64,000 nucleotides of DNA, taken from Gemmatimonadota bacterium. Lineage in GTDB: Bacteria; Gemmatimonadota; Gemmatimonadetes; Longimicrobiales; Gaopeijiaceae. Position 1 is the stretch's first letter. Each line of letters opens with the position of its first letter. The stretch spans positions 124,001-188,000 of the forward strand of contig JAJDUP010000003.1 in NCBI GenBank assembly GCA_022826565.1, given 5' to 3'. Below are positions 3,915 through 33,588 of this stretch, in pieces. A program made the position numbers and the translations under genes. The notes under the pieces were generated by a model. That model did not search any database, was not told the origin of the DNA, and saw only the letters and a list, made by a program, of their open reading frames with translations.

Positions 3915-4078
3915 TGCTATCGCCTCCACACTCCTGTTGTCGCTGACGGGCTCATGTGCGATCGATACTCGGAGGAGGCATGGCGGTTCCTCGGTTCCGC
4001 CGTTCCCGCGCGACTTGCATGCAGGGCAGGTTTGTCTGAGCTTCCCGCCCTGACCGGTCAGCCCACGGGAGATGACGA

Positions 4079-4693
4079 ATGAGTGACAAGCCGGCCCGCA
4101 TATCCGCTTCGCAGGTCTCGCTGATCCTTCAGCGCGCGGCGGAGATCGACGCGAGCGGCGACTCGCTGACGGTCGAGGAACTCAGGCGCATTGCGAGCGA
4201 AGCGGGAATCGACCCGGCGGCGACCGAGGCCGCGATCGAAGAGGTGGTGGTCGGCGAGGAGCCAGCGCCGGTGCCGGCGGTGCCGGTCGAGGACGAGAAG
4301 ACGAAGCTGCCCGCCAGGACATCGAAGGTGCCGTCAGCCGTCTGGATCGTAGCGAGCGGCGCGGTGGGGACGGCCCTGGGGTTTATCACTTCGCTTCCCG
4401 GGCCGATCGGAATCCCCGCGTTCGGGGCCGCCGTCCTCTATCTGATCGTGAGAACGGTGCAGAGCATGAAGCGGGGAGCCCAACTCGACTTCCAGCTTCA
4501 GAACTTCGCGGTCTGGTTCGGGCTGTTCATTGGTGGGACTGCCATCGCAAGGTTTGCCGACCTCGAGGTTTTGAGTGTCGCGTTGCTGTTCTGGATCGTG
4601 AGTTCGGTGGTCGGCGGCCTGATCGTCCGATTCGGTCCCCGTGAGGAGGATCCGGAGGACGAAGCGCCCCGGATCGGGCCGGGACGGCGTTAG
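4079..4693 (+). CDS. Small membrane protein, unknown function
   Basis: The 204-residue product starts with a charged helical region (about 1-60), then an Ala/Pro/Val linker and two hydrophobic blocks (about 83-126 and 141-181), each long enough for two membrane helices; it ends in an acidic, Pro-rich tail. GGGAG at 4068-4072 lies 6 bases before the ATG and could serve as ribosome-binding site. No catalytic motif is visible. It converges with the next gene with only 4 bases between the stops. The family is not recognised; an envelope or regulatory role is possible. Confidence 0.65.
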   Translation: MSDKPARISASQVSLILQRAAEIDASGDSLTVEELRRIASEAGIDPAATEAAIEEVVVGEEPAPVPAVPVEDEKTKLPARTSKVPSAVWIVASGAVGTALGFITSLPGPIGIPAFGAAVLYLIVRTVQSMKRGAQLDFQLQNFAVWFGLFIGGTAIARFADLEVLSVALLFWIVSSVVGGLIVRFGPREEDPEDEAPRIGPGRR

Positions 4694-4697
4694 CGCC

Positions 4698-5216
4698 CTA
4701 TCGCGACCCCTTCACCTTCACCGTCACCAGGTCGTTCAGGTAATAGTGCCGGTGACGCACCGACGAGGCGTAGTGCTGCAGCAGCCGAAGTGAAAGGTCC
4801 TGCTCGCTGGCGGGCGCGGCGTGTTTCTCGAGAAGCTTGAGCTGTTCCTCGAAGTTCGTCCCCTGCGGCGACGCCAGGAATTCGACTATAGCGCTTCCTT
4901 TTTCGCGGCGCGCCGAAACGCGCAGGCGCCGCAGCCCGGACGCCTCCGGACCGTCCCGCTCGGCCAGGGTCAGGAGCACCTCTTCGCCGGCCGCGCGCAG
5001 CCGCCGGCTCGAATCCTGGTTCCACCCGAGCCGCCGGGAGAACTCGGTCAGGAAATCATCCAGCAGGTGCCGGACCCCCGCGTCCAGCGACATGTCGATG
5101 TTGCCGCGCCGGGACCACCGCTCCCCCCATCCGAAGAACAGTCCCACGACCACAAAGAGTACGACCAGCACGACCACGGCGGCCGACGCGATCCAGATCA
5201 GATAGGAGGTCTCCAA
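4698..5216 (-). CDS. Membrane-anchored protein with possible GHKL-like cytosolic domain
   Basis: The longest frame reaches 5420, but its first 68 residues overlap the end of the upstream LVIVD gene and look like out-of-frame translation. The TTG at 5216 gives a 172-residue protein that starts directly with a membrane helix (YLIWIASAAVVVLVVLFVVV). The remainder, with FSRRLGWNQ, LRAAGEEVLLTLAE and a C-terminal ASSVRH block, recalls the ATP-binding-like tail of some SLC23-type permeases or anti-sigma kinases. That likeness is weak and from memory. No phospho-acceptor His was found. It follows the LVIVD gene by 49 bases, so it may be co-transcribed. Confidence 0.5.
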   Translation of the reverse strand: METSYLIWIASAAVVVLVVLFVVVGLFFGWGERWSRRGNIDMSLDAGVRHLLDDFLTEFSRRLGWNQDSSRRLRAAGEEVLLTLAERDGPEASGLRRLRVSARREKGSAIVEFLASPQGTNFEEQLKLLEKHAAPASEQDLSLRLLQHYASSVRHRHYYLNDLVTVKVKGSR

Positions 5217-5265
5217 GGCGTGTTTCCGGTTGTGAGTTGTCGCGCGGCCCGCGGAGCGTCCGCCG

Positions 5266-7344
5266 TCAGCTGACGGGCCTGCTCCTGGGCACGAGCCTCG
5301 CCGACCACAGCCCCGAATTCGTGTCCGAGAAGAAGACGCGGCCCTTGAAGGGCATCGCGCTCCAGGCCATCGGCGAATTGGGAACATAACCAATCGGGTC
5401 GTAGGCCTTGAAGACGGCAATTTCGCGTCCCTGGGTGTACAGGTTGCCCATCAGTTCGCCCGACACGTCCACCATGCGCACGCCACCCTCGTAGTAGGCC
5501 TGGTAGAGGATGTCGTCCTCCACCCAGATGTTGTGGGTGCCGTACTCGGGGACCTCGTAGCGCGCCACCATCCGCGGCGCCTCGGGATCGGAAAAGTCGA
5601 CGATCTGGATGTAGCCCCGCGTCGCAAGCGGAATCCCGTTCATCCCCGTCTCGGGATCGTACGGCAGCTGGTACGACCCGCGCCCCTGCCCCGGACCCTC
5701 CCACGCCAGCCCCCGACGGCTCATGATCTCGTCGCCCAGGAAGACGTAGTGCTTCCCCGTCGATGGCGAGATGTACGGGAAAACCGCGTGCGTTGCACCT
5801 CCCGGGATCGGGTAGCTGCTCACCAGAACCGGGTTTTCGGGCGAGCCGCCCCACCTCCCGTCGCCCACGTCCACGACCACCAGCCCGTTCTCCCACTCGG
5901 CCGAATAGGCGAGCCCGTCGAGCACCCACACGTCGTGCAGACGGCTGTCGGGGTGGTTGTATTCGCCGACCAGGCGCGGGTTGTACAGGTCGCTGATGTC
6001 CAGGATCACGTACTTGTCGCCGCCCGCCAGCGCGTAGACGTACTCGGGCGTGGGAAAGGCGTTGTGCACCCCGCCCGTCAGCCCGTGGTCCGTCACCTCG
6101 GAGGCGATCACGGGATGCGCGGGGTCCGCAAGGTCGAGGATCACCACCCCGTTGCGCCGGTTCGACGCCCCCTCGCGGGTCATGGTGGCGTAGCGCGCAT
6201 CCGGCGACACCTTCATGTCGTTGATCGACCGCGCGTCCACCTGGATCGAGTCGGTCTTGAAGATGTTCCCCGGCTCGGTCACATCCCACACGAATCCGTA
6301 TCCGTCGGACCGCTTGGCCCCGGTGAGCGCGTAGTCCCGCCCGTCGCGCCCCTCGAAGACCCAGAAATCGGTGGTGCGAACCCGCTGCTCCCTCCCCTGC
6401 CCCTGGATCTCGAGCTTCTGGACGACGTCGCGGGCGACGACCCGGAACGAGGTGCGCGCGGAAAGCGGCCCCGCGTCGGCGATCACGGTGTAGACGCCGG
6501 GGACATCCGCGACGAACCGGCCGCCGGACATCTGTGCCGGAGCGGGAGGCGCGATGACTCCCTCGGGCTCCTCCCAGATGTGGGACCACTCGACGGGCAC
6601 GCCACCCAGAAGGTCGCCGCCGGCGCCGCGCACCTCAGCGCTGAAGTCGATGACGTCGCCGGTGCGCGCCCGGGCGCCGCCGCCGGTGATCGCAATCGTC
6701 TCGCCCGTGAAAGGGTCTGCGCGCACAGTGAGCGTTCCGTCCACGCCATCGACCGTCGCGGTGATGGCAGCCGTGCCGGAGGCCACGGCCGTCACGCGCC
6801 CGAAGCGGTCAACGGCCGCGATGTCGGGTGCGCCGCTGCGCCACGTCACCTCGGGTTCGCTCCGGGCGGAACCGTCTGCATGCTCGGCACGCGCGTGCAT
6901 CCGCAGGGTGGTCCCCACGAGCAACCGATGGTCGGTGGTGGGAGTGACGACCACCCTGTCGACGGCTGGCCAGCCGATGCTGACCGGCACCCTCATGGTC
7001 ACAGGTTCGCCTGCGGGATCCCCACCCTCCCGCACCAGCGTCGCGATCAGCTCGTAGTCCCCCGCCGCCAGCGCGGTGACCACGCCCTGCCGCACCCTCA
7101 TCGCGGCCCGCGGCCCCACCAGCCGTACCACCGGGTTCTCCACCCGGGCCCCCGAGCGCGTGTAGGCCGCGATCGTCACCCGCACCTCGTCCCCGACGCG
7201 CATCTCGAGTGCGTCCGGGTAGGCCCACAGCCGGACGATCGGGTCGTCCCCGGTCTGGGCCGACAGGGGAGCGGCGGCGTAACTCGCGCCGACGAGACCA
7301 CCGGCAAGCATGAGGAGTCCGGTGAGCTTTGCGTTCCTGGTCAT
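5266..7344 (-). CDS. Secreted LVIVD-repeat protein with Ig-like domains (copy 1)
   Basis: The ATG at 7344 has GGAGG 7 bases upstream and starts a clear signal peptide ending near LSAQ; the open frame extends 30 codons further but without signal-like sequence. The 692-residue product has Ig-like/BIG2-type segments at about 30-330, then LVIVD-type beta-propeller repeats (for example GVVILDLADPAHPVIA, KYVILDISDLYNPRLVGEY) to the C-terminus. It is likely periplasmic or surface-exposed, with a binding or structural role; no catalytic residues are evident. A close relative lies at 48849-50942 with whole blocks identical. Confidence 0.8.
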   Translation of the reverse strand: MTRNAKLTGLLMLAGGLVGASYAAAPLSAQTGDDPIVRLWAYPDALEMRVGDEVRVTIAAYTRSGARVENPVVRLVGPRAAMRVRQGVVTALAAGDYELIATLVREGGDPAGEPVTMRVPVSIGWPAVDRVVVTPTTDHRLLVGTTLRMHARAEHADGSARSEPEVTWRSGAPDIAAVDRFGRVTAVASGTAAITATVDGVDGTLTVRADPFTGETIAITGGGARARTGDVIDFSAEVRGAGGDLLGGVPVEWSHIWEEPEGVIAPPAPAQMSGGRFVADVPGVYTVIADAGPLSARTSFRVVARDVVQKLEIQGQGREQRVRTTDFWVFEGRDGRDYALTGAKRSDGYGFVWDVTEPGNIFKTDSIQVDARSINDMKVSPDARYATMTREGASNRRNGVVILDLADPAHPVIASEVTDHGLTGGVHNAFPTPEYVYALAGGDKYVILDISDLYNPRLVGEYNHPDSRLHDVWVLDGLAYSAEWENGLVVVDVGDGRWGGSPENPVLVSSYPIPGGATHAVFPYISPSTGKHYVFLGDEIMSRRGLAWEGPGQGRGSYQLPYDPETGMNGIPLATRGYIQIVDFSDPEAPRMVARYEVPEYGTHNIWVEDDILYQAYYEGGVRMVDVSGELMGNLYTQGREIAVFKAYDPIGYVPNSPMAWSAMPFKGRVFFSDTNSGLWSARLVPRSRPVS

Positions 7345-23003: not shown

Positions 23004-24212
23004 ATGCCACCCGTCCACTACCACGAAGGCCGCTTTCCACCGGATGCACGGCTGGACTGGCGGCGTCTGGCTCCGCTGATCGGCCCCGCCGCCGCGGCGG
23101 TTGCGCGATACGACGCGGTCCTGGGGGCCCTTCCCGATCCTCGGTCGCTCCTCGCAGTGCCGCGCATCCAGGAGGCCGCACATTCGTCGCGGATAGAGAA
23201 CATCTACGCCAGCGTCACATCCGTGCTGGAAACGGCAGCGGGCATCGAGCCCGAAAACCGCTACGCGCTCGACGACATCCGCGATGTGCAGAACCATCTC
23301 GCCGCCCAGGACCTCCTGGCCGGGCGGGCCGGAGCGAAGCCATTGTCTCTCGGGCTGGTTCGGGAAGTCCATGCCCTGTTGCTCGACACGCCCCGTGGAC
23401 AGAAGAAGTCACCGGGCGAATTCCGGAAGGAGCCCGTCTGGATCGGGCGGGCCGGGTCCACTGCGGAAACTGCCAGCTTCGTTGGCGCCCAGGCGCCCCG
23501 GATCGCCGACGCGATGAGTGCGTGGGAACGCTACATACATTCGGACGTCCGTGATCGCCTTGTGCAGATCGCGGTTCAGCATGCCGAGTTCGAGGCGGTG
23601 CATCCGTTCATGGACGGGAACGGCCCCCTGGGCCGAATGCTTATTCCACACCTGATGTGGCGACACGGCCTCATTCGGATGCCGGTCTTCTGCCTCAGCG
23701 TCATGATGGCGTCGAGGCAGGGCATCTACTTCGATCGCCTGCTCGGTGTATCCCGTAACGATGACTGGACCGGTCTCTGTCTGTACTTCCTCGACGCCAT
23801 ACGCACGCAGGCGGATCACGGGGTCCAGGTTCTGACGGCAATCCTGGACCTCTACCGCAGCACCGAGGTACGGGTGCGAGAACTTTCGGGCGACCGCGAT
23901 CTCCCCGCGGCCCTGGGAGCACTCTTCTCCCGGCCGATCTTCCCCGCAAGCGATTTCATCGCCGCAACCGGCATCCCCGCGCGGTCGGGACGCAGGCTGC
24001 TCGCGGGTCTGGAGGAATCGGAAACGGTCGTGGAGATCACGCCGCCGCGGGGACGACGGCCCGCCGTGATGCGGTTTCCGCGGCTCCTGAAGATCGTGGA
24101 GGGCCAGGATGGCCTGGGTCGCTGGCCGCGACGGGCCGCGCCGGTCGCAGGCGTCGTTTCGCCAGTTGCGCTGCCCGCCTCGGGTATGCCGAGCCAGATC
24201 TCCTCCCGGTAG
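23004..24212 (+). CDS. Fic family protein, class II (N-terminal inhibitory helix)
   Basis: The 402-residue product shows a class II inhibitory motif SSRIEN (61-66, Glu65) in its N-terminal helices and a Fic core loop HPFMDGNGPLGR at 200-211. Catalytic His200 is kept, but the usual first Arg of GNGRxGR is Pro208; the final Arg211 remains. A C-terminal winged-helix-like region (about 310-375) is present. Fic enzymes transfer AMP or other nucleotides to protein hydroxyls. The Pro replacement may change nucleotide handling. No antitoxin gene is adjacent; control is probably through the inhibitory helix. Confidence 0.85.
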   Translation: MPPVHYHEGRFPPDARLDWRRLAPLIGPAAAAVARYDAVLGALPDPRSLLAVPRIQEAAHSSRIENIYASVTSVLETAAGIEPENRYALDDIRDVQNHLAAQDLLAGRAGAKPLSLGLVREVHALLLDTPRGQKKSPGEFRKEPVWIGRAGSTAETASFVGAQAPRIADAMSAWERYIHSDVRDRLVQIAVQHAEFEAVHPFMDGNGPLGRMLIPHLMWRHGLIRMPVFCLSVMMASRQGIYFDRLLGVSRNDDWTGLCLYFLDAIRTQADHGVQVLTAILDLYRSTEVRVRELSGDRDLPAALGALFSRPIFPASDFIAATGIPARSGRRLLAGLEESETVVEITPPRGRRPAVMRFPRLLKIVEGQDGLGRWPRRAAPVAGVVSPVALPASGMPSQISSR

Positions 24213-24349: not shown

Positions 24350-24676
24350 GTGCAGATCACGCTTTCCAGGAGAATCAACGAGCTCCTCGTGCTGGCGGTT
24401 CTTGAGGCCGCCCCCGCGCACGGCTACCAGATCGCCCTGTCGGTCGAGGAGCGGTCCGGCGGGCTTTTCGTTTTTCAGCACGGCACGCTGTATCCCATCC
24501 TCCACCGCCTCGAGGCGGAGGCTAAGCTGCGGGGCGAGTGGCACGGCGAAGGACGCCGCCGCAAGACCTACCACATCACCGCCGCAGGGCGAGCCACCCT
24601 GCAGGCGGGGGCGGCGGAGCTGGAGGAGCAGTTCAGGGTGCTCCTCCAGCTGCTGGGACCGAACCGTGTGGCGTGA
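24350..24676 (+). CDS. PadR family transcriptional regulator
   Basis: The GTG at 24350 has GGAGG 8 bases upstream and gives 108 residues, the normal size for short PadR proteins. The winged helix is clear: ELLVLAVLEAAPAHGYQIAL, then FQHGTLYPILHRLEAEAKLR and RRRKTYHITAAGRATL. It very likely binds the dyad at 24276-24298 and represses its own operon. Translation is coupled to the next gene, whose start overlaps or closely follows this stop codon. This PadR-membrane protein pairing is common in Acidobacteria- and Gemmatimonadota-like genomes. Confidence 0.9.
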   Translation: MQITLSRRINELLVLAVLEAAPAHGYQIALSVEERSGGLFVFQHGTLYPILHRLEAEAKLRGEWHGEGRRRKTYHITAAGRATLQAGAAELEEQFRVLLQLLGPNRVA

Positions 24677-24680
24677 GAGC

Positions 24681-25421
24681 ATGCTGGAGGCGCTCGCGCG
24701 GAAGCTGAAGGCACCTCCCCGGCGGCGGCTGGAGCTGATCGAGGAGTTGGGCGCGGACGCCGAGGCCCTGCAGGAGGAGCTGGAGCGGCGCGGATACGAT
24801 GCGGGGACCGCGCGACGGATTGCGGTGGGCCGGGTGGTGCCGTCGGGTGAAGTGCTGGCCGAGCTGGAGGCACGGCACGCGCCGCGGCTGGGGCGGTGGA
24901 CCCGAAGAACCGGTGTGGCGAACGGGATCGAGCGGATGGGAGCCGCTGTGACGGCCGTTTTGGCCGGGGCGGCCATGCTGGCCGTGCTCTGGCGGCAGGA
25001 TCCGGGGGCGGCCGGGGGTTTGCTGGGATGGTCCCTGGTCGGGGTGGTCGCCCTCCTCTCCTCGAACTGGGCGCGGGCGGCGAAGGGGTTGTGGATCGAT
25101 GGGGACCTGCCCGTGGAGAAGCGCCGAACTCTCTGGACGCGCCAGTCCGGCCTGATGGTAACAGCGGCGGCACTGGGCGGGCTGGGCGCCGCGTGGGAAG
25201 GATACCTCGCCCTCGGGGCACTCGAAGAAGCTCCCGGCGCGGCGTGGATCTCGATTCAGGGCGCTGTCTTCTACGGAGCAGTTGGGCTGGGAGCCGCGGC
25301 GTTCGGTGCACTTGGGTGGCTCGCTTTCGTCCCCCGCCTGATCAGCGACGAGACCCTGGAGGGTCGGATTGCGATCGCTCTCAGGCAACTGCGGTCGATC
25401 CGTATCCTCCACAACCGATAG
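24681..25421 (+). CDS. Membrane protein of PadR operon, unknown function
   Basis: The 246-residue product begins with a soluble helical domain (ALARKLKAPPRRRLELIEEL, about 1-75) of the permease-prefix/HAAS style often paired with PadR, followed by four predicted membrane helices. The ATG at 24681 is used; a GTG at 24666 overlapping the PadR stop codon is an alternative, and either implies translational coupling. It sits between the PadR gene and the large fusion gene, 9 bases apart. It may be the regulated envelope component or sense the signal for PadR; no catalytic residue is seen. Confidence 0.65.
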   Translation: MLEALARKLKAPPRRRLELIEELGADAEALQEELERRGYDAGTARRIAVGRVVPSGEVLAELEARHAPRLGRWTRRTGVANGIERMGAAVTAVLAGAAMLAVLWRQDPGAAGGLLGWSLVGVVALLSSNWARAAKGLWIDGDLPVEKRRTLWTRQSGLMVTAAALGGLGAAWEGYLALGALEEAPGAAWISIQGAVFYGAVGLGAAAFGALGWLAFVPRLISDETLEGRIAIALRQLRSIRILHNR

Positions 25422-25430
25422 GAGACGACA

Positions 25431-27953
25431 ATGACGGGAATCGTCGATACCCTGCGAGCTCTTTTTCACGAGTCCGGTATCACCGGGATTCCGCACTTCG
25501 CGCTTCTGCTGTTGGTCCTCGCCCAGGTGGGGCGCGTGATCCACGCGAAGGCGCGCCGCCCTGGCAAGCGCATCGCCGATACGCAGTTCGCCGCCATCCT
25601 CGTGTTGGGCGTTCTAGCCGCATGCGTGGGGATCATCGGAACGCTCGTCGGGATATGGCAGACCTCCGGCCTGGTTGCCGCGGCGGGAGAGGTCGGCACA
25701 GTTCTGGTGTGGAGCATGATGCGAGTGGCCATGACCCCCTCGATCATCGGATTCTCCATCCTGACCATCGCCTCGGTGGCTTGGCTCGTCCTCCACTACT
25801 GGAACGGCCGCGGATCGAGATCGAAGGGTCGGGGCCCGGTAGCATCACTCGTCCTGGCCTCGCTGCCGACGGGGATGGGTTGCACCGGCGAGACGACCCT
25901 GGACGGAGACGTTTTCACAGCCCGTGACTCGGCTGGCATTGTGATCGTCGAGAACCAGGCAGAGGACTACTCCCTTGACGATCAGTTGGTTGGACTGACC
26001 GATCTGATGACGCCGGATGGTTCGCTCAATCCCCTCCCGTGGGGAATTGTGGCCGATCCGGCAGCCGAGCGCGTCTACATTGCGGACGGGATGGGAAAAC
26101 GGGTCGCCGTCTTCGACGCCGCGGGCCGATTCTTGCGAACACTGGGTCGGGCGGGTGAGGGTCCCGGCGAATTCCAGGCCCCAGGCGCACTCGCGCTGGA
26201 GGAATGCAGCGCCGATTCCTGCTACGGCCTCCCAGGGCCAACTCGTGTCCTGGTTGTCCTCGACTCGCGGCGGTCCGTCCTGAGCCGTTGGTCCAGCGAC
26301 GGAGACTTTCTGGAAGAGGCGCCGATACCGGGCGACTATTGGGGTCCCGGCTTCGCCATCGGCCCCGATTGGTTCGCTACAACGGCCTCGCACACGATGG
26401 GCAGGCGGGTGGACCAGCGGCTAGAGATCCAGACTCCCGAAGTCCGTCGCTCCGTGCACGAAGTGGCAATTGAGACAAACATGGTGGAGCTTCCGTGCGT
26501 GACCATGCCCGCTCGCAGAATCTTCGCGCCGGACGTGGTCTGGACCAGCAACGGCGGCACTCTTCATTACCTGAACGGCACCGGCTATCGGATCGATGCG
26601 TATGCGGAGGGGGTGCTGGTCCGGAGCGTTCGCCGCCCGGTGCGGTCTGTCGCGGTCTCGCGCGCCCTGGCCGTGTCGTCGCTGGCGTTGCCCGGCCCAT
26701 ACGAGGGACTCATGCGGCAGTGCGGCGTCTCGGCCGAAAACCTGGTGGACGCCGTTGGCTACGAGAACGAACTGGCGCCGGTGGTGTGGCTGGCGGTGGA
26801 TCCCGGCGGACGGCTGTGGGTCGCTCGCAGGATGTCCGGCCTGGCTCCGGAAGCCATTGACGTTATCGACGCCGAAGGCAAGTACCTGGGGACGCTCGCT
26901 GCGGCGGTGCTGCCTATCGCGTTCCTCTCGCAGTCGAGGTTCGTCGGGGTGAGGATCGAGATGTCAACGGGGCGGCTCGTCGCGTCAATCTACGAGGTTG
27001 AAGGTGAATCGGCAGGAGGCCCCGGCGGCACTCCGAGTATTGCGGCACCACGGATGTCACCACCGAATCCGGCTGAAATCCGTGTGGTCGATCCCGAGCC
27101 GGCAGCCGAGCCCGCTCCCAATCCGGCTGGGCTGCGCGAATTCCGTGACTGTGCGGCCTGCCCGCTGATGGTCGAACTCCCCCCGGGGCGCTACCTCATG
27201 GGAAGGGCGGAGGGGGAAGATGAGCGAACGGGATTGAACCGGGACCCCAACTGGCCACAGCATGCGCGCGACGGCGAGAGACCGCAGGTGGAGGTCACAA
27301 TCGCCTACCCCTTCGCATTGGGCAAGTACGAAGTCACCTTCGACGAATGGGACCGTTGCGTCCACGCCGGCGGCTGCATCCATCGGCCCGGCGACCGGGG
27401 CTGGGGGCGCGGCACCCGACCGGTCATTCATGTCTCCCGTGTCGATGCCGAAGGCTACCTGGCGTGGCTGAGCCGCACCACCGGGCAGACTTACCGGTTG
27501 CCGAGCAGCGCCGAGTGGGAGTACGCCGCGCGCGCCGGCACGACCACCGCCCGCTGGTGGGGCGATGAACTGGGGACTGGAAGGGCCGTCTGCGATGGGT
27601 GCGGCAGCCGCTGGGACGACGTGTCATCCGTGCCGGTGGGCTCCTTTCCACCCAACCCCTGGGGCCTGCACGATATGCTCTCGAACGTGTCCGAAGTGGT
27701 CGCCGACTGCTGGCACGACAACTACGAAGGCCACCCGGCCGACGGGTCCGCACGGCTGAAGGCACCCGCGGGTTGGCCCGACGGCGAATGCAGGCGAGCG
27801 ACCTGGCGAGGCGGCGGCTGGGGCTACTTCACCTGGACCGTTCGCGCCGCAACCCGCAGCGGTGGGAACATGTCCCTCGAATTCCGTAACGATCATCAAC
27901 TGGTCGGCGGGGGCCACGGCTTTCGTGTGGCGCGGGCCGTGGAGCCGGGGTGA
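25431..27953 (+). CDS. Three-part fusion: ExbB/TolQ-like membrane domain, beta-propeller, FGE-like domain
   Basis: One uninterrupted 840-codon frame holds three modules. Residues about 20-125 form membrane helices with MotA/TolQ/ExbB-like sequence (VGIIGTLVGIWQ, AMTPSIIGFSILTIASVAWL). Residues about 138-151 look like a second, internal lipoprotein signal (SLVLASLPTGMGC). Residues 160-540 are a six-bladed propeller of the DSAGIVIVEN type (YIADGMGKRVAVFDAAGRFL). Residues 565-838 are a formylglycine-generating-enzyme/SUMF1-like domain (VELPPGRYLMG, RLPSSAEWEYAARAGTT, HGFRVAR). The active-site Cys pair of true FGE is absent in the WRGGGWGYFTWTVRAATR segment. Ribosome-binding site GGAG is at 25422. 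It is the third gene of the PadR operon. Confidence 0.75.
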   Translation: MTGIVDTLRALFHESGITGIPHFALLLLVLAQVGRVIHAKARRPGKRIADTQFAAILVLGVLAACVGIIGTLVGIWQTSGLVAAAGEVGTVLVWSMMRVAMTPSIIGFSILTIASVAWLVLHYWNGRGSRSKGRGPVASLVLASLPTGMGCTGETTLDGDVFTARDSAGIVIVENQAEDYSLDDQLVGLTDLMTPDGSLNPLPWGIVADPAAERVYIADGMGKRVAVFDAAGRFLRTLGRAGEGPGEFQAPGALALEECSADSCYGLPGPTRVLVVLDSRRSVLSRWSSDGDFLEEAPIPGDYWGPGFAIGPDWFATTASHTMGRRVDQRLEIQTPEVRRSVHEVAIETNMVELPCVTMPARRIFAPDVVWTSNGGTLHYLNGTGYRIDAYAEGVLVRSVRRPVRSVAVSRALAVSSLALPGPYEGLMRQCGVSAENLVDAVGYENELAPVVWLAVDPGGRLWVARRMSGLAPEAIDVIDAEGKYLGTLAAAVLPIAFLSQSRFVGVRIEMSTGRLVASIYEVEGESAGGPGGTPSIAAPRMSPPNPAEIRVVDPEPAAEPAPNPAGLREFRDCAACPLMVELPPGRYLMGRAEGEDERTGLNRDPNWPQHARDGERPQVEVTIAYPFALGKYEVTFDEWDRCVHAGGCIHRPGDRGWGRGTRPVIHVSRVDAEGYLAWLSRTTGQTYRLPSSAEWEYAARAGTTTARWWGDELGTGRAVCDGCGSRWDDVSSVPVGSFPPNPWGLHDMLSNVSEVVADCWHDNYEGHPADGSARLKAPAGWPDGECRRATWRGGGWGYFTWTVRAATRSGGNMSLEFRNDHQLVGGGHGFRVARAVEPG

Positions 27954-28028
27954 ACCATTTGGCCCGCTACAGGGCTCCCGGAAGCCCGCTGGTCGTCACT
28001 TTCGGCCCGAAATGGCGCGCAACGAATC

Positions 28029-28946
28029 TCATCCCCGCCAAACCGGCAACGTCAAACACGTCGGACCCCCCTCGCACGGAATGCACAGCGCGTCCGCGTC
28101 GAAGCACGTGACCTCGCAACCCGCGTCCTGCATCAGTCTCACCGTCTCCGGAAACCCGCCAACCGCGATACACCGGCGGGGCCCCAGCGCCAGCACATTC
28201 AGGGTCAGGCCTCCCGACGCCTCGAACTCGGCGTCGGGCGCCGCCAGGCACTGGACCCCGCGCTCTTGCATCAGCCGATGCAGCGCCACCGGTACCAGCC
28301 GCGGGTAGACGAGCACCAGATCCCGGTCCAGCGGGCTGACGACCGACAGCAGGTGCAGGCAGGCCGATGCGCCGTGCCACATGGGAAGGTCGAAGGTATG
28401 GACCTCTACACCCATGGGGGCCACGATGGCCTGCAGTTGCTCGATGCCCTCCTGGTTGGTGCGAAAGGTGCGTCCCGCGGCAAGCGTCCGGTCGTCGAGC
28501 CAGATGAGGTCGCCGCCCTCGGCCGTGCCCGGCGGCTCGATTGCGCCGACGACGGGCACGCGCAGCCGTTCGTACAGCGCTGCGTGCAGCGCAACCTCCG
28601 GCCGCCGCAGGGCCTTGCCGGGCCGGAGGAGAATCGCCCCCGCCGGCGTCATGAAAGAGGGATCGAAGACGAAGATGGAGTCGGCGAGGCCGTCGTCGTT
28701 GCCTGGGATCCATTCGATGTGGGCACCGAAGTCGGCGACGCGCAGGGCGAAGGTGTCGTACTGCGCCGCCATTCGCGCCGCGTCGGGCGGTCCCGTGAAG
28801 TGCCAGCGGGCCGGATCGGCGTGGAAGGTGGATGAGCCCGGGCGCCGCATCGCGACCCGGCGCAGGGGCGCCACCATGCTTCCCACACCGAACCGGGCGG
28901 TCCGCGCGGCATCCTCCGTGGGCGGGACCGGGGGGTTGCCGCTCAT
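28029..28946 (-). CDS. Dimethylarginine dimethylaminohydrolase/amidinotransferase-family enzyme
   Basis: The 305-residue product matches the DDAH/arginine-deiminase-like guanidine hydrolases: AMRRPGS near the N-terminus, NDDGLADSIFVFDPSF, GTAEGGDLIW, LPMWHGASACLH and a C-terminal GGPTCLTLP whose Cys (about 297) is the expected nucleophile. Family reaction: methylated arginine to citrulline plus dimethylamine. Its start overlaps the stop of the amino-acid permease gene by 4 bases (ATGA), so uptake and breakdown of arginine-type compounds are probably coupled. Ornithine- or glycine-type amidino-group enzymes are alternatives. Confidence 0.8.
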   Translation of the reverse strand: MSGNPPVPPTEDAARTARFGVGSMVAPLRRVAMRRPGSSTFHADPARWHFTGPPDAARMAAQYDTFALRVADFGAHIEWIPGNDDGLADSIFVFDPSFMTPAGAILLRPGKALRRPEVALHAALYERLRVPVVGAIEPPGTAEGGDLIWLDDRTLAAGRTFRTNQEGIEQLQAIVAPMGVEVHTFDLPMWHGASACLHLLSVVSPLDRDLVLVYPRLVPVALHRLMQERGVQCLAAPDAEFEASGGLTLNVLALGPRRCIAVGGFPETVRLMQDAGCEVTCFDADALCIPCEGGPTCLTLPVWRG

Positions 28947-30313
28947 TGCGGACCTCGCTCCGCGCCGGCCGACGCCGCCCTCTTCCATCGCATCAACGCG
29001 AACACCGGGATACCGGCCACCAGGAGCAGGAAGCCCCAGTACACCGTCTCGGTACCGGCACCCGCGATCGCCCATACGGAGAACCCGAACGCGAGGACGG
29101 CCGCCGCCGCCCCACGAATTGCGGCCGGCGGCGTAGCGCTGCCCGTCGCGGAACGCGTGCGCAGCGCAAGGATCAGTCCCGTCATGCTCGCAAAGACGTA
29201 CGGCACGAGGGTCGCCAGGGTGGCGAGCCGGATTAGGAAGGTGAAGGCGTCCACCAGGCCGCGGGTGTAGTTCATTGCGATCAGCAGCGACACCAGGATG
29301 CTGGAGAGGTAGAGGCCGGCGGTCGGGGTGCGGCGCGGGCTCAGGCGCGCGAACCGGGCCGGCAGGAGACCGTCGAGCGCAGCGGCGCGCGGGATCTGGC
29401 CGGTGAGCAGGACCCAGCCGTTGAGCGCGCCGAAACACGAGATCGTGGCGCCGGCGCCGATGAGCCACCGACCCCACGAGCCCCAGATCGACCCGGCCGC
29501 GTCCGCGAAGGGTGCCGTCGTAACGGCGAGCTCCTCCGGCGCGATGATCCCCATCACGGCGAGGGTGCAGGTCATGTAGACCACGGCCGCCACAGTCGTT
29601 CCGAGGACCGTTGCGCGCGGGATGGTCCGCTGTGGATCGCGTACGCCGTCCGCGGGGATCGTCGCGACCTCCAGCCCCAGGAACGCCCACAGGGTGAGCG
29701 TGACGGTCGCCGTCACCGCGCTGATGGCTGTGCCGCCCGTCGGGATGAAGGGCTCGAAGTGACCGGGCTCGAAGTACAGAAAGCCAACGGTGCCGATCGC
29801 GGCCAGCGGCAGCAGCTTGAGAACGGTGGTGACGAGTTGCACACGCCCCGCTGTGCGCAGACCATGGGCGTTGACGAGCGTCAGGGTCCAGAGCGCGGCC
29901 AGCGCCGCAACCAGCCCCGCCGCCGGCGCGCCGCCGATGCCCGGCAGGAACACCGACGCGTAGCTCGCGGTGGCGACGGCCAGCGCCGCATTGCCCGTGA
30001 GTAGCGAGATCCAGTAGGACCACGCGATCCAGAAGCCGACGAAGTCCCCGAACCCCTCGCGACCGTACGCGTAGGGCCCGCCGACGCGGGGCATCGCTGC
30101 ACTCAGCTGCGCCAGGACGAATGCCAGGCACAGGGCTCCCCCGGCGCTCACGAGCCATCCGACGACGCTGATTCCGCCGAAGGGCGCCAGCGAGGCCGGC
30201 AGCAGGAACACACCTGCGCCGATCATGCTCCCTGCGACCAGCGAGGTACAGGTCCACAGCCCGAGCGTGGCGGGGCGTCGGCCGGCCTCCGTGGTGGTTC
30301 TGTCGCCGGTCAT
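28943..30313 (-). CDS. APC-superfamily amino-acid permease
   Basis: The 456-residue product starts at the ATG at 30313; codons further upstream are translated from the 34-bp repeats and are excluded. Twelve membrane helices are likely, with the APC first-helix signature TSLVAGSMIGAGVFLLPASL. Similarity is to the basic amino-acid/polyamine antiporter (APA) branch, such as arginine/agmatine exchangers. The 4-base overlap with the downstream dimethylarginine hydrolase-like gene supports a substrate of the arginine family. It probably acts in the inner membrane as importer or exchanger. Confidence 0.85.
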   Translation of the reverse strand: MTGDRTTTEAGRRPATLGLWTCTSLVAGSMIGAGVFLLPASLAPFGGISVVGWLVSAGGALCLAFVLAQLSAAMPRVGGPYAYGREGFGDFVGFWIAWSYWISLLTGNAALAVATASYASVFLPGIGGAPAAGLVAALAALWTLTLVNAHGLRTAGRVQLVTTVLKLLPLAAIGTVGFLYFEPGHFEPFIPTGGTAISAVTATVTLTLWAFLGLEVATIPADGVRDPQRTIPRATVLGTTVAAVVYMTCTLAVMGIIAPEELAVTTAPFADAAGSIWGSWGRWLIGAGATISCFGALNGWVLLTGQIPRAAALDGLLPARFARLSPRRTPTAGLYLSSILVSLLIAMNYTRGLVDAFTFLIRLATLATLVPYVFASMTGLILALRTRSATGSATPPAAIRGAAAAVLAFGFSVWAIAGAGTETVYWGFLLLVAGIPVFALMRWKRAASAGAERGPQ

Positions 30314-30341
30314 CTGCCTGTTTGGGTCCGGTTGGGCACTC

Positions 30342-30375
30342 TTGTCGGCCAATTGGCCCCATTCTTGGCCGACAA
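30342..30375. repeat. 34-bp inverted element, unit B1
   Basis: Left arm TTGTCGGCCAA, 12-base core, right arm TTGGCCGACAA: a perfect 11-bp inverted repeat. It lies 28 bases upstream of the permease start codon. Confidence 0.8.
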
Positions 30376-30392
30376 AGTCCGTTTGGCGCCCG

Positions 30393-30426
30393 TTGTCCGC
30401 CAATTCATCCCGCTTTTGGCCGACAA
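30393..30426. repeat. 34-bp inverted element, unit B2
   Basis: Left arm TTGTCCGCCAA, different 12-base core, right arm TTGGCCGACAA. It starts exactly 51 bases after B1, as in the A pair, with an unrelated 17-base spacer. Confidence 0.8.
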
Positions 30427-30509
30427 TCCGGCCTCGCCGGCGACTCCGGGTTGCGCCACACTAGCCATCAGTCGAAGTCGCCGCAACCGCGGCCCCGGCA
30501 GACCCGCGG

Positions 30510-30941
30510 CTAAGCGCGGCGCCGGTAAATCAAGCGCCTCACCTCGTGGTACCACTCGGCCCCGAATTCGTCGATGAGCCGCGCGCGGCCGCGGGAAATC
30601 ATGCTGCGCTGGAGGTCGTCCATGTAGTCGGGCGAATAGGTTTCCTGCGTCATCAGCTGCGGGCCCCGCGGCGTCACCCGGAACGTCCTCACGGTCAGGG
30701 GGCCGTCATACGCCGCCAGTTCGTGTAACTCCCGGCTGCTCCTCACGATCGCCACGCTCTCGCCCTCGGCGGTCACCCCCGTGATCACATCGAACAGGAG
30801 ATCTCCGGCCTCCTCCCCCGGTGGAATGAACTCCTCCAGGGACAATCCCCGAACGTCGAGCACCCGCTTCAACTCATCGGGTATCCCCTCCGGTGCAACG
30901 TCCAGGCTGTCGCGTCCCGTCAGTGCCAGTAGTATCGCCAT
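30510..30941 (-). CDS. Hypothetical cytosolic protein
   Basis: From the ATG at 30941, preceded by GGAGGAGG, the product is 143 residues. It begins MAILLALTGRDSLDVAPEGI and has an alternating beta/alpha pattern with an acidic middle and a basic end (YHEVRRLIYRRRA). No signal, membrane segment or known motif is visible. It is separated by 196 bases, containing two repeat elements, from the permease gene and is divergent from gamma-glutamyltransferase. Family unknown; the good ribosome-binding site and GC-biased codons support it as real. Confidence 0.6.
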   Translation of the reverse strand: MAILLALTGRDSLDVAPEGIPDELKRVLDVRGLSLEEFIPPGEEAGDLLFDVITGVTAEGESVAIVRSSRELHELAAYDGPLTVRTFRVTPRGPQLMTQETYSPDYMDDLQRSMISRGRARLIDEFGAEWYHEVRRLIYRRRA

Positions 30942-31198
30942 CCCATCCTCCTCCCCTCCCCTGCCCACGCATGGAGGTACATTGCTTGCTGTTGCTCCGG
31001 AGACGCAGGACTCGTCCTCCAGTGTGGGGATCATTCCCCTGCCCGCTTCAATTCACGCCCCGTCCGGATCTGTTCCCTCGTTCCTGCGATTGGTGCCTGG
31101 CGGCGCGGTCTGGCGCGGACGAACGGAACGCGGCATCGTCCAGTCGGCCCCGAGGTGACTGGGGCGCGGCATCCCAACCGACCGAGGAGCAACAGTCC

Positions 31199-32974
31199 AT
31201 GCGGGAAGTATCGAGTGGTGTGAGGCCGACCCTTCCGAGCGCGGCCTTGGCGGCGCTTCTGTCGGCGACGTTTCTCTTTTCGGCTGGCTGTGGGCCTGCC
31301 GCGGAGGCGGCACGGCCGGACGGCCCTGAGACGGAGTCTGGCGAGATGACTTTCCCTGCGACCAATCGGCCGGACGTGCGCGGAACTTCCGGGGCGGTGT
31401 CAGCCGGCCACCCGCTCGCCGCGGCGGCGGGCCACGACGTGCTGCGCAGGGGCGGAAACGCGATGGACGCCGCGATTGCGATGGCCGGGGTGCTGGCCGT
31501 GGTTCGCCCCCACATGAACGGGATCGGCGGCGATGCCTTCGCCCTCTACTACGAGGCGGAAACCGGCCAGGTCCATGCCTTGAACGGCAGCGGCCGCGCC
31601 GGAGCCCTGGCCACTCCCGCCCTGTTCGCCGAGCGCGGGCTCGACGAGATGCCCGGCAACGGCCCCCTCTCGGTGTCGGTACCCGGGGCGGTCGCGGCCT
31701 GGGTGGACGCCCTGGACCGCTTCGGCACCCTGCCGCGCGAGGAACTGCTCGCACCTGCAATCGGCTACGCCCGCGACGGCTTTCCGGTCTCGACCCGGCT
31801 CGCCAGCGACATCGTGGCTTCGTCCGGCGCACTCAACGACCCTGCGCGCGCGCTCTACACTCCCGGCGGGGAGCCGCCGCCGGTCGGCAGCCTGCTGCGC
31901 AATCCCGCGCTGGCGGCCACCATCGAGCGGATCGCCGCCGACGGCAAGGACGGCTTTTACCAAGGTTGGGTCGCCGAACGGCTTTCCTCGTTCCTTGAAG
32001 CGGAGGGCGGGTATGTCCGCGCGCCCGACCTGGCCGCGCACACCACGACCTGGGTCGAGCCGCTGCGAGCCGGCTATCGGGACTACACCATGCTGGTGCT
32101 TCCGCCCAATACCCAGGGGATCGCCCAGCTCCAGCTCTTCGAGATGGCGAAGTCCTTCGACCTGACGGTAATGGGCCACAACAGCGCGAGCTACCTGCAC
32201 ACGCTCGTCGAGATGAAGAAGCTCGCCTTCGCGGACCGCGACCAGTGGGCGGCCGATCCCGACTTCACCGACCTGCCGCTGGATGATCTGCTCGATCCCG
32301 ACTACCTGGCGGCGCGGGCGGCGATGGTGGACCCCGCCGCCGCGACCGCCGCGCGGACGCCCGGGGTCCCGGCTGGCATGGCAGCGGCAGCGGGAGGATC
32401 CGCGAGCGACGACTCGGGCGACACGGTGTATCTCACGGCGGTGGACCGGTGGGGCAACGCGGTGAGCTGGATCCAGAGCCTGTTCGCCGGTTTCGGCTCC
32501 GGACTGCTCGAACCCGAAACGGGGATCGTCCTGCACAACCGGGGGGCGCTCTTCAACCTCGATCCGGGCCATCCGAACATCATCGCGCCCGGGAAGCGTC
32601 CCTATCACACCCTGACCCCCATGATGGCGCTCCACGGCGACGGCAGCTTCGCCTTCACCCTGGGCACGCCCGGCGGCGACAGTCAGCCGCAGAGCCTGCT
32701 CCAGATCGTCAACAACTTCACCCTCTTCGGCATGACGCCCCAGGCGGCGATCGAAGCGCCCCGCTTCCGCAGCTACGGCGGGCTGCGGATCGCCTTCGAG
32801 GACCGGGTGACGGGCGCGGTGCTGGCCGAACTGGGAGCGCTCGGCCATGAGGTCGAGGTCGTGCACGGCTGGACCGCCACCTTCGGCGGGGCACACATGA
32901 TCCTGCGCGACCGCGACGGCACGCTCACCGCCGCATCGGACCCGCGCCGGGAAGCGTATGCGATCGCGCATTGA
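31199..32974 (+). CDS. ggt: Gamma-glutamyltransferase family protein
   Basis: From the ATG at 31199 the 591-residue product has a lipobox (FLFSAGC, Cys31), the GGT N-terminal block GHPLAAAAGHDVLRRGGNAMDA, and the autocleavage site at GDTVYLTAVDRWGNAVS with Thr409 as the expected new N-terminal nucleophile, followed by GTPGGDSQPQ. GGTs mature into two chains and hydrolyse or transfer gamma-glutamyl groups of glutathione and related peptides, usually in the periplasm. The lipoprotein signal suggests membrane anchoring. It is divergent from the small hypothetical gene at 30510. Confidence 0.9.
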   Translation: MREVSSGVRPTLPSAALAALLSATFLFSAGCGPAAEAARPDGPETESGEMTFPATNRPDVRGTSGAVSAGHPLAAAAGHDVLRRGGNAMDAAIAMAGVLAVVRPHMNGIGGDAFALYYEAETGQVHALNGSGRAGALATPALFAERGLDEMPGNGPLSVSVPGAVAAWVDALDRFGTLPREELLAPAIGYARDGFPVSTRLASDIVASSGALNDPARALYTPGGEPPPVGSLLRNPALAATIERIAADGKDGFYQGWVAERLSSFLEAEGGYVRAPDLAAHTTTWVEPLRAGYRDYTMLVLPPNTQGIAQLQLFEMAKSFDLTVMGHNSASYLHTLVEMKKLAFADRDQWAADPDFTDLPLDDLLDPDYLAARAAMVDPAAATAARTPGVPAGMAAAAGGSASDDSGDTVYLTAVDRWGNAVSWIQSLFAGFGSGLLEPETGIVLHNRGALFNLDPGHPNIIAPGKRPYHTLTPMMALHGDGSFAFTLGTPGGDSQPQSLLQIVNNFTLFGMTPQAAIEAPRFRSYGGLRIAFEDRVTGAVLAELGALGHEVEVVHGWTATFGGAHMILRDRDGTLTAASDPRREAYAIAH

Positions 32975-33019
32975 GCGAGCAGTGGCCCGTGCGTTCCCCC
33001 ACCCGTCCGGGCTTGGCAG

Positions 33020-33412
33020 ATGACTGAATCAGCGCGGAGACTGGCCGCCAGCGGTGCGGGTCTGGCACTGTTGGGCGTGGCGCTGGGAGCCTTCGGTGCC
33101 CATGGGCTGGAGTCACGGCTCTCGCCCGCCGATCTCGGCGCCTTCGAGACGGCCGTCCGATACCAGATGTACCATGCGCTGGGTCTCTTCGGCGTAGCCT
33201 GGCTGGCCGACGGGACCGGCCATGCACTGGTCGTCCGCGGAGGATTGCTCCTCGTTGCGGGGACGGCTGTGTTTTCCGGCACCCTGTATCTGCTGGTCCT
33301 CTCCGGCGCGAGCTGGCTGGGGGCGGTCACGCCGGTTGGGGGCGTTATGCAGCTGGCCGGGTGGCTCCTGGTGCTCCTGGGATCGGTGCAACGGCCAGCC
33401 GACACTCCATAA
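33020..33412 (+). CDS. DUF423 membrane protein (YgdD-like)
   Basis: The 130-residue product has four hydrophobic helices and DUF423 signatures (GALGAFGAHGLE-like start LGAFGAHGLESRL, FETAVRYQMYHALGL, VFSGTLYLLVLSG, VTPVGGVMQLAGWLLV). Function of the family is unknown. It is 45 bases downstream of the gamma-glutamyltransferase gene in the same direction, so read-through is plausible. Confidence 0.85.
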   Translation: MTESARRLAASGAGLALLGVALGAFGAHGLESRLSPADLGAFETAVRYQMYHALGLFGVAWLADGTGHALVVRGGLLLVAGTAVFSGTLYLLVLSGASWLGAVTPVGGVMQLAGWLLVLLGSVQRPADTP

Positions 33413-33450
33413 GCACTCCCCGCGGTGCTATCCGGGGGGCGAAGAAGGAG

Positions 33451-33484
33451 TGGTCGGCCAGTCCCGGCTCGGAATGGCCGACAA
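33451..33484. repeat. 34-bp inverted element, unit C (single copy)
   Basis: Arms TGGTCGGCCAG and ATGGCCGACAA around a 12-base core keep the 11-12-11 layout. No partner is found 51 bases to either side. It lies in the gap between the DUF423 gene and the coiled-coil membrane protein gene. Confidence 0.65.
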
Positions 33485-33588
33485 GACCGGGGGCTCGCCA
33501 AGTGGAGCACAAATAGTCCCATCCGGACATGGAAGCGCCCCGCCATCCCTGATACCGTACCACCAAACGCGTGGAGGGAGAACAGGAC

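What the first reader, a model, noticed from the sequence alone, without database searches (positions are those of the whole stretch)
25431..27953. Single protein joining an ExbB-like channel domain, beta-propeller and FGE-like domain
An 840-codon frame without interruption joins a MotA/TolQ/ExbB-like membrane unit, an internal lipoprotein-signal-like segment ending in Cys151, a six-bladed propeller that is normally a separate lipoprotein, and a SUMF1/FGE-like domain. No start codon fits immediately before the internal signal, so it reads as a true fusion. The combination suggests an envelope sensor or scaffold. I know of no described protein with this order.
Basis: partly seen in the sequence, partly recalled or inferred. 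Interest (0 to 1): 0.75.

Follow-up and report, generated by a model that had tools for sequence, protein, structure and literature searches.

The report
Membrane channel-lipoprotein fusion with internal signal
In uncultured Gemmatimonadota bacteria two genes that lie side by side in relatives, one for a small channel-like membrane protein and one for a lipoprotein predicted to be propeller-shaped, are joined into one gene that still carries the lipoprotein's export signal in its middle, and the cell's lipoprotein peptidase would likely cut the product there into two proteins.

Summary
The 840-codon gene is real and intact: 4 of 23 genus genomes carry the same in-frame fusion, and protein searches gave 25 further fused clusters. 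It fuses gene 3 of a PadR / HAAS-like operon, a compact ExbB/TolQ-like three-helix protein, to gene 4, a propeller plus PvdO-like lipoprotein. In 8 of 8 relatives read codon by codon these are separate neighbours.

Fused proteins are not one clade (AU p 2e-85), so fusion and/or loss recurred. All 26 keep a hydrophobic run ending in a lipobox Cys at the joint. The three modules are under purifying selection while the joint drifts. Lgt and LspA are in the genome.

I conclude: probably a gene fusion without a lasting protein fusion, a pre-protein that LspA would split at Cys151. Cleavage is untested, and the window's own hydrophobic run is short. Placement as envelope input to PadR-HAAS is inferred from the operon and from a sharp 2.9-kb divergence against a close relative that starts inside the HAAS-like gene. 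The FGE-like domain is closest to PvdO and lacks both FGE catalytic cysteines.

The parts
24350..24676 (+). PadR-family regulator, first gene of the operon (GTG start chosen from the ribosome-binding site GGAGG and from homologues beginning MQITLS)
   Evidence: Pfam PadR 80.3 bits against cut-off 27; start context; upstream of ExbB in relatives
24681..25421 (+). Membrane protein with an N-terminal HAAS/permease-prefix-like domain, likely partner of PadR
   Evidence: NCBIfam perm_prefix_1 E 0.0014, 18.4 bits against cut-off 30; Pfam HAAS in 5 of 14 aligned members at E<=1, best 0.00048, none in the window's own protein
25420..25425 (+). Ribosome-binding site AGGAGA of the fused gene, overlapping the stop of the upstream gene
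   Evidence: sequence
25431..27953 (+). Fused gene: ExbB/TolQ-like + internal lipoprotein signal + propeller + PvdO/FGE-like domain (840 aa)
25431..25802 (+). ExbB/TolQ-like module, residues 1-124; modelled helices 16-42, 50-85, 90-125; T71 and S104 align with TolQ proton-path Thr145 and Thr178
   Evidence: TolQ residues from PMC12965293 (passages)
25803..25880 (+). Junction, residues 125-150: positively charged segment, then a short uncharged hydrophobic run = retained signal peptide of the lipoprotein, without the stop and start codons seen between the separate genes of relatives
25881..25883 (+). Codon of lipobox Cys151, predicted Lgt/LspA site
   Evidence: lipobox in 26 of 26 fused proteins
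25884..27014 (+). Stalk and beta-propeller (NHL/DUF5128 type), to about residue 528
27015..27104 (+). Low-confidence linker, residues 529-558
   Evidence: dN/dS of 1.09-1.59 for the overlapping segment 531-562 in the three close pairs
27105..27950 (+). PvdO-like FGE-fold domain, residues 559-840, without the two FGE catalytic cysteines
25100..28028 (.). Segment that differs sharply from close relative G006: in 50-base windows identity is 94-100% from 24351 to 25100, 82% in 25101-25150 and 50-78% from there to the end of the alignment at 25802; the next alignment starts at 28028 (94.2% over 28028-33571)

Best explanation
The gene fuses two neighbouring operon genes, an ExbB/TolQ-like three-helix membrane protein and a propeller plus PvdO-like lipoprotein, around the lipoprotein's own retained signal peptide, and its product is likely a pre-protein that the cell's lipoprotein peptidase (LspA) would cut at Cys151 into an inner-membrane protein and a free lipoprotein. 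Shown: the fusion, the interleaving of fused and unfused forms, the retained lipobox and selection on all modules. Predicted: N-outside three-helix topology with the charged joint in the cytoplasm, so that the fourth hydrophobic segment crosses outward as a signal peptide with its Cys at the periplasmic face. Inferred: Lgt lipidates Cys151, LspA cleaves before it, residues 1-150 stay in the inner membrane and the 690-residue lipoprotein is anchored by lipid. Also inferred: the two products, made in equal amounts, form the extracytoplasmic input of the co-encoded PadR-HAAS-like pair, which would adjust transcription to an envelope signal or ligand bound by the propeller/PvdO-like part.
For: Separate adjacent genes in other frames in 8 of 8 relatives read codon by codon, ExbB stop a few bases before the lipoprotein ATG in the Palauibacter-type loci. 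Same joint in 4 of 23 genus genomes. Lipobox pattern at the joint in 17 of 17 fused proteins and 9 of 9 more; a Cys 12-18 residues before the conserved D-S-A in 26 of 26, no charge in the 14 residues before it in 25 of 26. In the aligned joint the Cys column is 25 of 26, the next best column 23 of 26; all 26 show the Cys without alignment, so the odd row is presumably an alignment slip. dN/dS over six pairs: ExbB 0.15-0.21, propeller 0.16-0.23, FGE-like 0.15-0.36, joint 0.38-2.64. No start-type codon after GTG93 is shared by the four fused genus genes. One LspA and one Lgt hit in the genome. P0028, P0038 and P0034 begin with scraps of ExbB (P0034 also of PadR) joined to the signal, so the lipoprotein can be kept while the channel part goes. 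PadR plus HAAS-like gene beside ExbB and propeller in genus g1, in g12 and in Palauibacter-type genomes; HAAS-PadR proposed as an alternative to two-component systems (PMC11237479, passages). Divergence breakpoint inside the HAAS-like gene.
Against: Cleavage of an internal lipobox was not tested, and the listings of my searches showed no described case. In the window's own protein the joint's hydrophobic run is short: of 19 fused proteins scanned for hydropathy, 18 have a flagged segment at the joint and the window's P0001 has not, and the first structure model gives only a low-confidence short helix there (137-144). The same simple scan flags extra or overlapping segments in several rows, so the three-plus-one helix count rests on the model and on P0055-type rows. 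The lipobox is weak at -3 (G, S or A in 20 of 26 rows), and the ExbB-helix Cys65 also fits the loose pattern, so the pattern alone proves little. 8 of 41 unfused proteins fail the pattern, six of them by a Pro at -2. The window itself has a GTG at codon 116. The HAAS assignment is below cut-off. G273, a P0055-type fusion, has PadR directly upstream without a HAAS-like match and its frame is broken. In G021, G007, G018, G003 and G009 the propeller gene stands without PadR or ExbB within the 18 kb fetched, so the partnership in cis is not obligatory, and G003 has no compact ExbB match at all.
Confidence: 0.55

Rival explanations
1. Single-chain protein: the retained signal acts as an uncleaved fourth membrane helix, and propeller and FGE-like domains stay tethered to the ExbB-like bundle in the inner membrane as one sensor or scaffold.
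For: One open frame; in 18 of 19 fused proteins scanned the joint is hydrophobic enough to be flagged; all modules under selection; the -3 lipobox residue is often poor.
Against: Nothing in an uncleaved anchor requires Cys, yet all 26 fused proteins keep it where unfused lipoproteins have theirs, while the rest of the joint drifts. In the window's own protein the run is short for a membrane helix.
Confidence: 0.3
2. The Cys is lipidated but not cut, giving one protein anchored both by helices and by lipid.
For: The Cys is conserved; Lgt is present.
Against: LspA is also present; established knowledge is that lipidated prolipoproteins are cut.
Confidence: 0.07
3. A second translation start inside the gene makes the lipoprotein separately.
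For: GTG116 in the window; a GTG at codon 93 is shared by the four fused genus genes; the two genes nearly touch in relatives.
Against: GTG93 lies before the third helix, so its product would still carry the signal internally; no in-frame ATG/GTG/TTG between codon 92 and the Cys in the three fused genus relatives; no stop codon ends the first part.
Confidence: 0.05
4. Assembly or sequencing artefact.
For: The related records named are metagenome assemblies; G273 shows a broken frame.
Against: Same joint at 59-96% identity in other genomes and database clusters, purifying selection across the gene.
Confidence: 0.01

Closest known systems
TolQ / ExbB / MotA channel family (PF01618)
   Same: Helix 2-3 signature; T71 and S104 align with TolQ Thr145 and Thr178 (PMC12965293, passages). 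Among PDB sequences TolQ heads the list, but only at E 0.098
   Different: Only about 120 aa, no long cytoplasmic domain, window protein below the Pfam cut-off, no ExbD/TolR match on this contig, fused to a lipoprotein
PvdO and formylglycine-generating enzyme (PF03781)
   Different: Neither FGE catalytic cysteine (336, 341) is present; 140 bits against the PvdO equivalog cut-off of 500; pyoverdine genes were not looked for
6-bladed propeller lipoproteins (DUF5128, NHL-like)
   Same: Propeller and lipobox; standalone in relatives
   Different: Here preceded by an ExbB-like module and followed by a PvdO-like domain
HAAS-PadR envelope signalling pairs (PMC11237479, passages read)
   Same: PadR followed by a membrane protein with a HAAS-like N-terminus and further membrane genes
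   Different: HAAS match weak; partner here is an ExbB-like plus propeller pre-protein, which I did not see among the partners in the passages read
Cytochrome b/c1 pre-protein FbcH of Bradyrhizobium (recalled; three paper searches, did not bring it up)
   Same: Membrane protein and exported protein encoded as one chain with an internal signal (recalled)
   Different: There signal peptidase I type cleavage (recalled); here a lipobox, predicted for LspA, and a lipoprotein product
Tol-Pal: TolQ plus propeller protein TolB
   Same: A TolQ-like membrane part and a 6-bladed propeller protein in one system (PMC12204202, passages)
   Different: Different propeller family, separate genes there; no ExbD/TolR match near the fusion

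Membership tests
MotA/TolQ/ExbB (PF01618) | Score above the curated cut-off | tested here: not met
   16.9 bits against 22.9 for the window's N-terminus; 12 of 17 members of the ExbB alignment match at E<=1, best 4.3e-6; P0061 27.0 bits
MotA/TolQ/ExbB (PF01618) | Hydroxyl residues of the proton path (TolQ Thr145, Thr178) | tested here: met
   T71 and S104 in the window; position 71 S or T in 25 of 25 fused and 120 of 120 compact; position 104 S or T in 116 of 120 compact but only 10 of 25 fused rows (residues from PMC12965293)
MotA/TolQ/ExbB (PF01618) | Large cytoplasmic domain and an ExbD/TolR partner gene | tested here: not met
   Loop of under 20 residues between helices 1 and 2 in the window; the three ExbD matches of the genome lie on contigs C1 and C8, none on the window's C14
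Formylglycine-generating enzyme | Fold | tested here: met
Formylglycine-generating enzyme | Catalytic cysteine pair (human 336 and 341) | tested here: not met
   The aligned stretch RGGGWGYFTWTVRAATRS has no Cys; none there in any of the 22 rows of the family alignment, window included (numbering from PDB titles)
PvdO | Equivalog cut-off | tested here: not met
   140 bits against 500, although PvdO is the best match by sequence and fold
6-bladed propeller DUF5128 | Curated cut-off | tested here: met
   24.3 bits against 22.9
Bacterial lipoprotein | n-region, h-region and lipobox Cys | tested here: met
   Present but internal, at residues 125-151; the h-region is short in the window protein
Bacterial lipoprotein | Lipidation and LspA cleavage | not testable with these tools
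   Needs cells; Lgt and LspA genes present
HAAS-PadR pair | PadR gene beside a HAAS-domain membrane protein | tested here: inconclusive
   PadR met; HAAS in 5 of 14 members at E<=1, none in the window protein; NCBIfam perm_prefix_1 below cut-off

The most novel reading that the evidence does not exclude
A recurrently evolved bacterial pre-protein class in which lipoprotein signal peptidase serves as the splitter of a gene fusion: one translation product delivers an ExbB/TolQ-like membrane subunit and its propeller lipoprotein in equal amounts, as an exchangeable sensor cassette for a PadR-HAAS switch.
Probability: 0.42. Interest if true: 0.78.

Novelty: new variant of a known kind. Interest (0 to 1): 0.6.

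Why it matters
If the joint is cut, a genome annotated with one 840-aa 'enzyme' actually makes two proteins, and lipoprotein export tolerates, and keeps selecting, a signal behind three membrane helices; signal prediction that looks only at N-termini would miss such proteins. The series of separate genes, fusion and scarred loss is also a natural test of when co-translation of partners pays. And it gives the poorly studied ExbB-like small proteins of PadR operons a physical partner to test.

Tried and rejected
Assembly error: rejected by conserved joints. Catalytic FGE: rejected, no cysteine pair. Canonical proton motor: not supported, no ExbD match on this contig and a shortened fold, although pore hydroxyls are kept in the window. 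One clade of all fused proteins: rejected by the AU test on columns that exclude the ExbB part. Gain and loss cannot be told apart by the count of changes (8, 7); separate neat genes in Palauibacter-type loci and in the outlying L066 make separate genes the likely older state (inference). P0060, whose long start is unclear, was counted as unfused.

The first whole-protein AlphaFold2 model was poor in the FGE-like part and at the joint (pLDDT 66.5), so the mature part was refolded with 76 rows (pLDDT 88.2). The fold searches rest on that second model. Literature for an internal-signal precedent and for PvdO chemistry gave little; no held paper on FbcH surfaced. The listing showed no ExbB-propeller fusion; I read passages of one listed paper.

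Rows dropped before counts: the tree left out P0035, P0036, P0037, P0040, P0049 (short) and P0061-P0064 (not among the rows taken); the tree used 33 chosen rows; the lipobox count left out P0036 and P0040 (no head), and P0062-P0064 were not in its list; the hydropathy scan used 19 of the 26 fused proteins; the residue count left out P0007 (starts inside the ExbB part). One search scored only the 7996 candidates sharing most words, 7997, 7993; all can miss relatives. One search listed 12 of 116 papers. In one search, L067 and L073 were left out because their matched stretch holds a stop codon, and only some of the FGE-like loci were used.

Full report

Ancestry. Of 23 genus genomes (59 relatives searched), four have the full fusion (G000, G002, G013, G015); seven have propeller plus FGE-like domain without the ExbB part (G003, G007, G009, G016, G018, G019, G021; G019 is cut by contig ends); G017 has the ExbB part in one frame and a propeller scrap in another. 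For the other eleven no comparable match heads their list; that table was cut at its end. In one search, 18 of the 23 genomes hold one strong match to the compact ExbB; in the four fused genomes that match is the fusion itself. In 8 of 8 relatives read codon by codon (L056, L058-L061, L063, L065, L066) ExbB and lipoprotein are separate neighbouring genes in different frames, behind PadR and the HAAS-like gene. In genus g12 genomes the same families lie together in another order. So the fusion most likely joined operon neighbours and lost the stop and start between them (inference).

Recurrence. One search found 62 relatives at E<=0.001; 16 of them are fused by their N-termini (P0007 starts inside the ExbB part). 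One search, with the ExbB part of P0055 as bait, found 12 proteins, the query among them, all 12 with a propeller, 6 of them without the FGE-like domain, 9 of them new. With the window's own protein this makes 26 fused proteins. On a tree of the part behind the joint the fused rows are not one clade (AU p 1.8e-85, 15 against 18 rows) and need 7 changes (8 on the 55-row tree). P0028 and P0038 start with the first residues of a fused ExbB joined straight to the signal, and P0034 with scraps of PadR and ExbB: scarred losses of the channel part with the lipoprotein kept. Start sites there are as predicted by the databases.

Why I think it is cut. A retained signal without a role should decay. Instead, 26 of 26 fused proteins have a Cys 12-18 residues before the conserved D-S-A, 17 of 17 and 9 of 9 fit the lipobox pattern there (pattern recalled from PROSITE), and no charged residue lies in the 14 positions before the Cys in 25 of 26. 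In an alignment of the 26, the Cys column is the best of the joint (25 of 26, the next 23). Meanwhile the joint drifts: dN/dS 0.38-2.64 over about 20 codons, against 0.15-0.21 for the ExbB part, 0.16-0.23 for the propeller and 0.15-0.36 for the FGE-like domain over six pairs, with dS near or beyond saturation in pairs with the window. Charge and helix placement fit N-outside, three helices, a cytoplasmic charged stretch, then an outward signal; the positive-inside rule is recalled knowledge. The genome has one Lgt and one LspA match. The only start-type codon after codon 88 shared by the four fused genus genes is the GTG at window codon 93, before the third helix.

What speaks against it. Cleavage itself is not shown. 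That also tells against an uncleaved membrane anchor in the window protein. The scan flags extra or overlapping segments in several rows. The lipobox is poor at -3 in 20 of 26 rows, and a Cys in the second ExbB helix fits the loose pattern too.

What it may do. PMC11237479 (passages) proposes that HAAS-PadR pairs replace two-component systems, with HAAS relaying a membrane-linked signal to PadR. Here the membrane and periplasmic partners would be the ExbB-like and propeller/PvdO-like products. One comparison fits: against close relative G006, identity in 50-base windows is 94-100% from 24351 to 25100, then 82%, then 50-78% to the end of the alignment at 25802; it is 94.2% again over 28028-33571. 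In between G006 has a separate, 47% identical ExbB and no propeller match. The breakpoint lies inside the HAAS-like gene, near its codon 140 of 246, so PadR and the HAAS-like start stay while the later membrane part and everything behind it differ. Which genome received the segment is not known. The FGE-like domain is closest to PvdO and lacks the FGE cysteine pair, so I expect a binding or other redox role, not formylglycine formation. The ExbB part keeps hydroxyls at the two TolQ proton-path positions in the window (PMC12965293, passages), but position 104 is S or T in only 10 of 25 fused rows, and no ExbD match lies on this contig, so I do not call it a proton motor.

Limits. The related records named are mostly metagenome-assembled; names of G handles are withheld, though contig lengths suggest that G002, G015 and G021 are the records VXQO01000014.1, VXMI01000009.1 and OX639991.1, and some of the 25 database clusters may be the same species as genus genomes. 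Protein searches drew on word-sharing candidates only. The absence of a described ExbB-propeller or internal-lipobox pre-protein rests on the listings in an open-access library.

Noticed in passing
25100-28028: Sharp divergence between the window genome and close relative G006: 94-100% identity in 50-base windows just before, 50-82% in the aligned stretch after the breakpoint inside the HAAS-like gene, 94.2% from 28028 on; direction of the exchange unknown.
   Followed up: partly
L161 (G273:C82), about 4544-6562: A P0055-type ExbB-propeller fusion directly behind PadR, with no HAAS-like match between, whose frame is broken.
   Followed up: partly
L042 (G017:C62), 3455-4690: Compact ExbB followed by a propeller scrap in another frame: probably a decayed fusion.
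   Followed up: partly
G000-G022: Many FGE-like and propeller paralogues in every genus genome (13-19 matches each, with the scored candidates capped at 16).
   Followed up: no
L018, L021, L173, L174 (G008, G022, G011): A second, distant kind of propeller plus FGE-like stretch (34-40% identical) with a stop codon reported inside the match.
   Followed up: no
23004-24212: Fic/DOC-family protein directly upstream of PadR in the window and in G006, with no match in the fetched loci of fused relatives G002, G013, G015.
   Followed up: no
L058 (JAPPHB010000009.1): Record titled Gammaproteobacteria carries a Palauibacter-like locus; perhaps a mislabelled bin.
   Followed up: no
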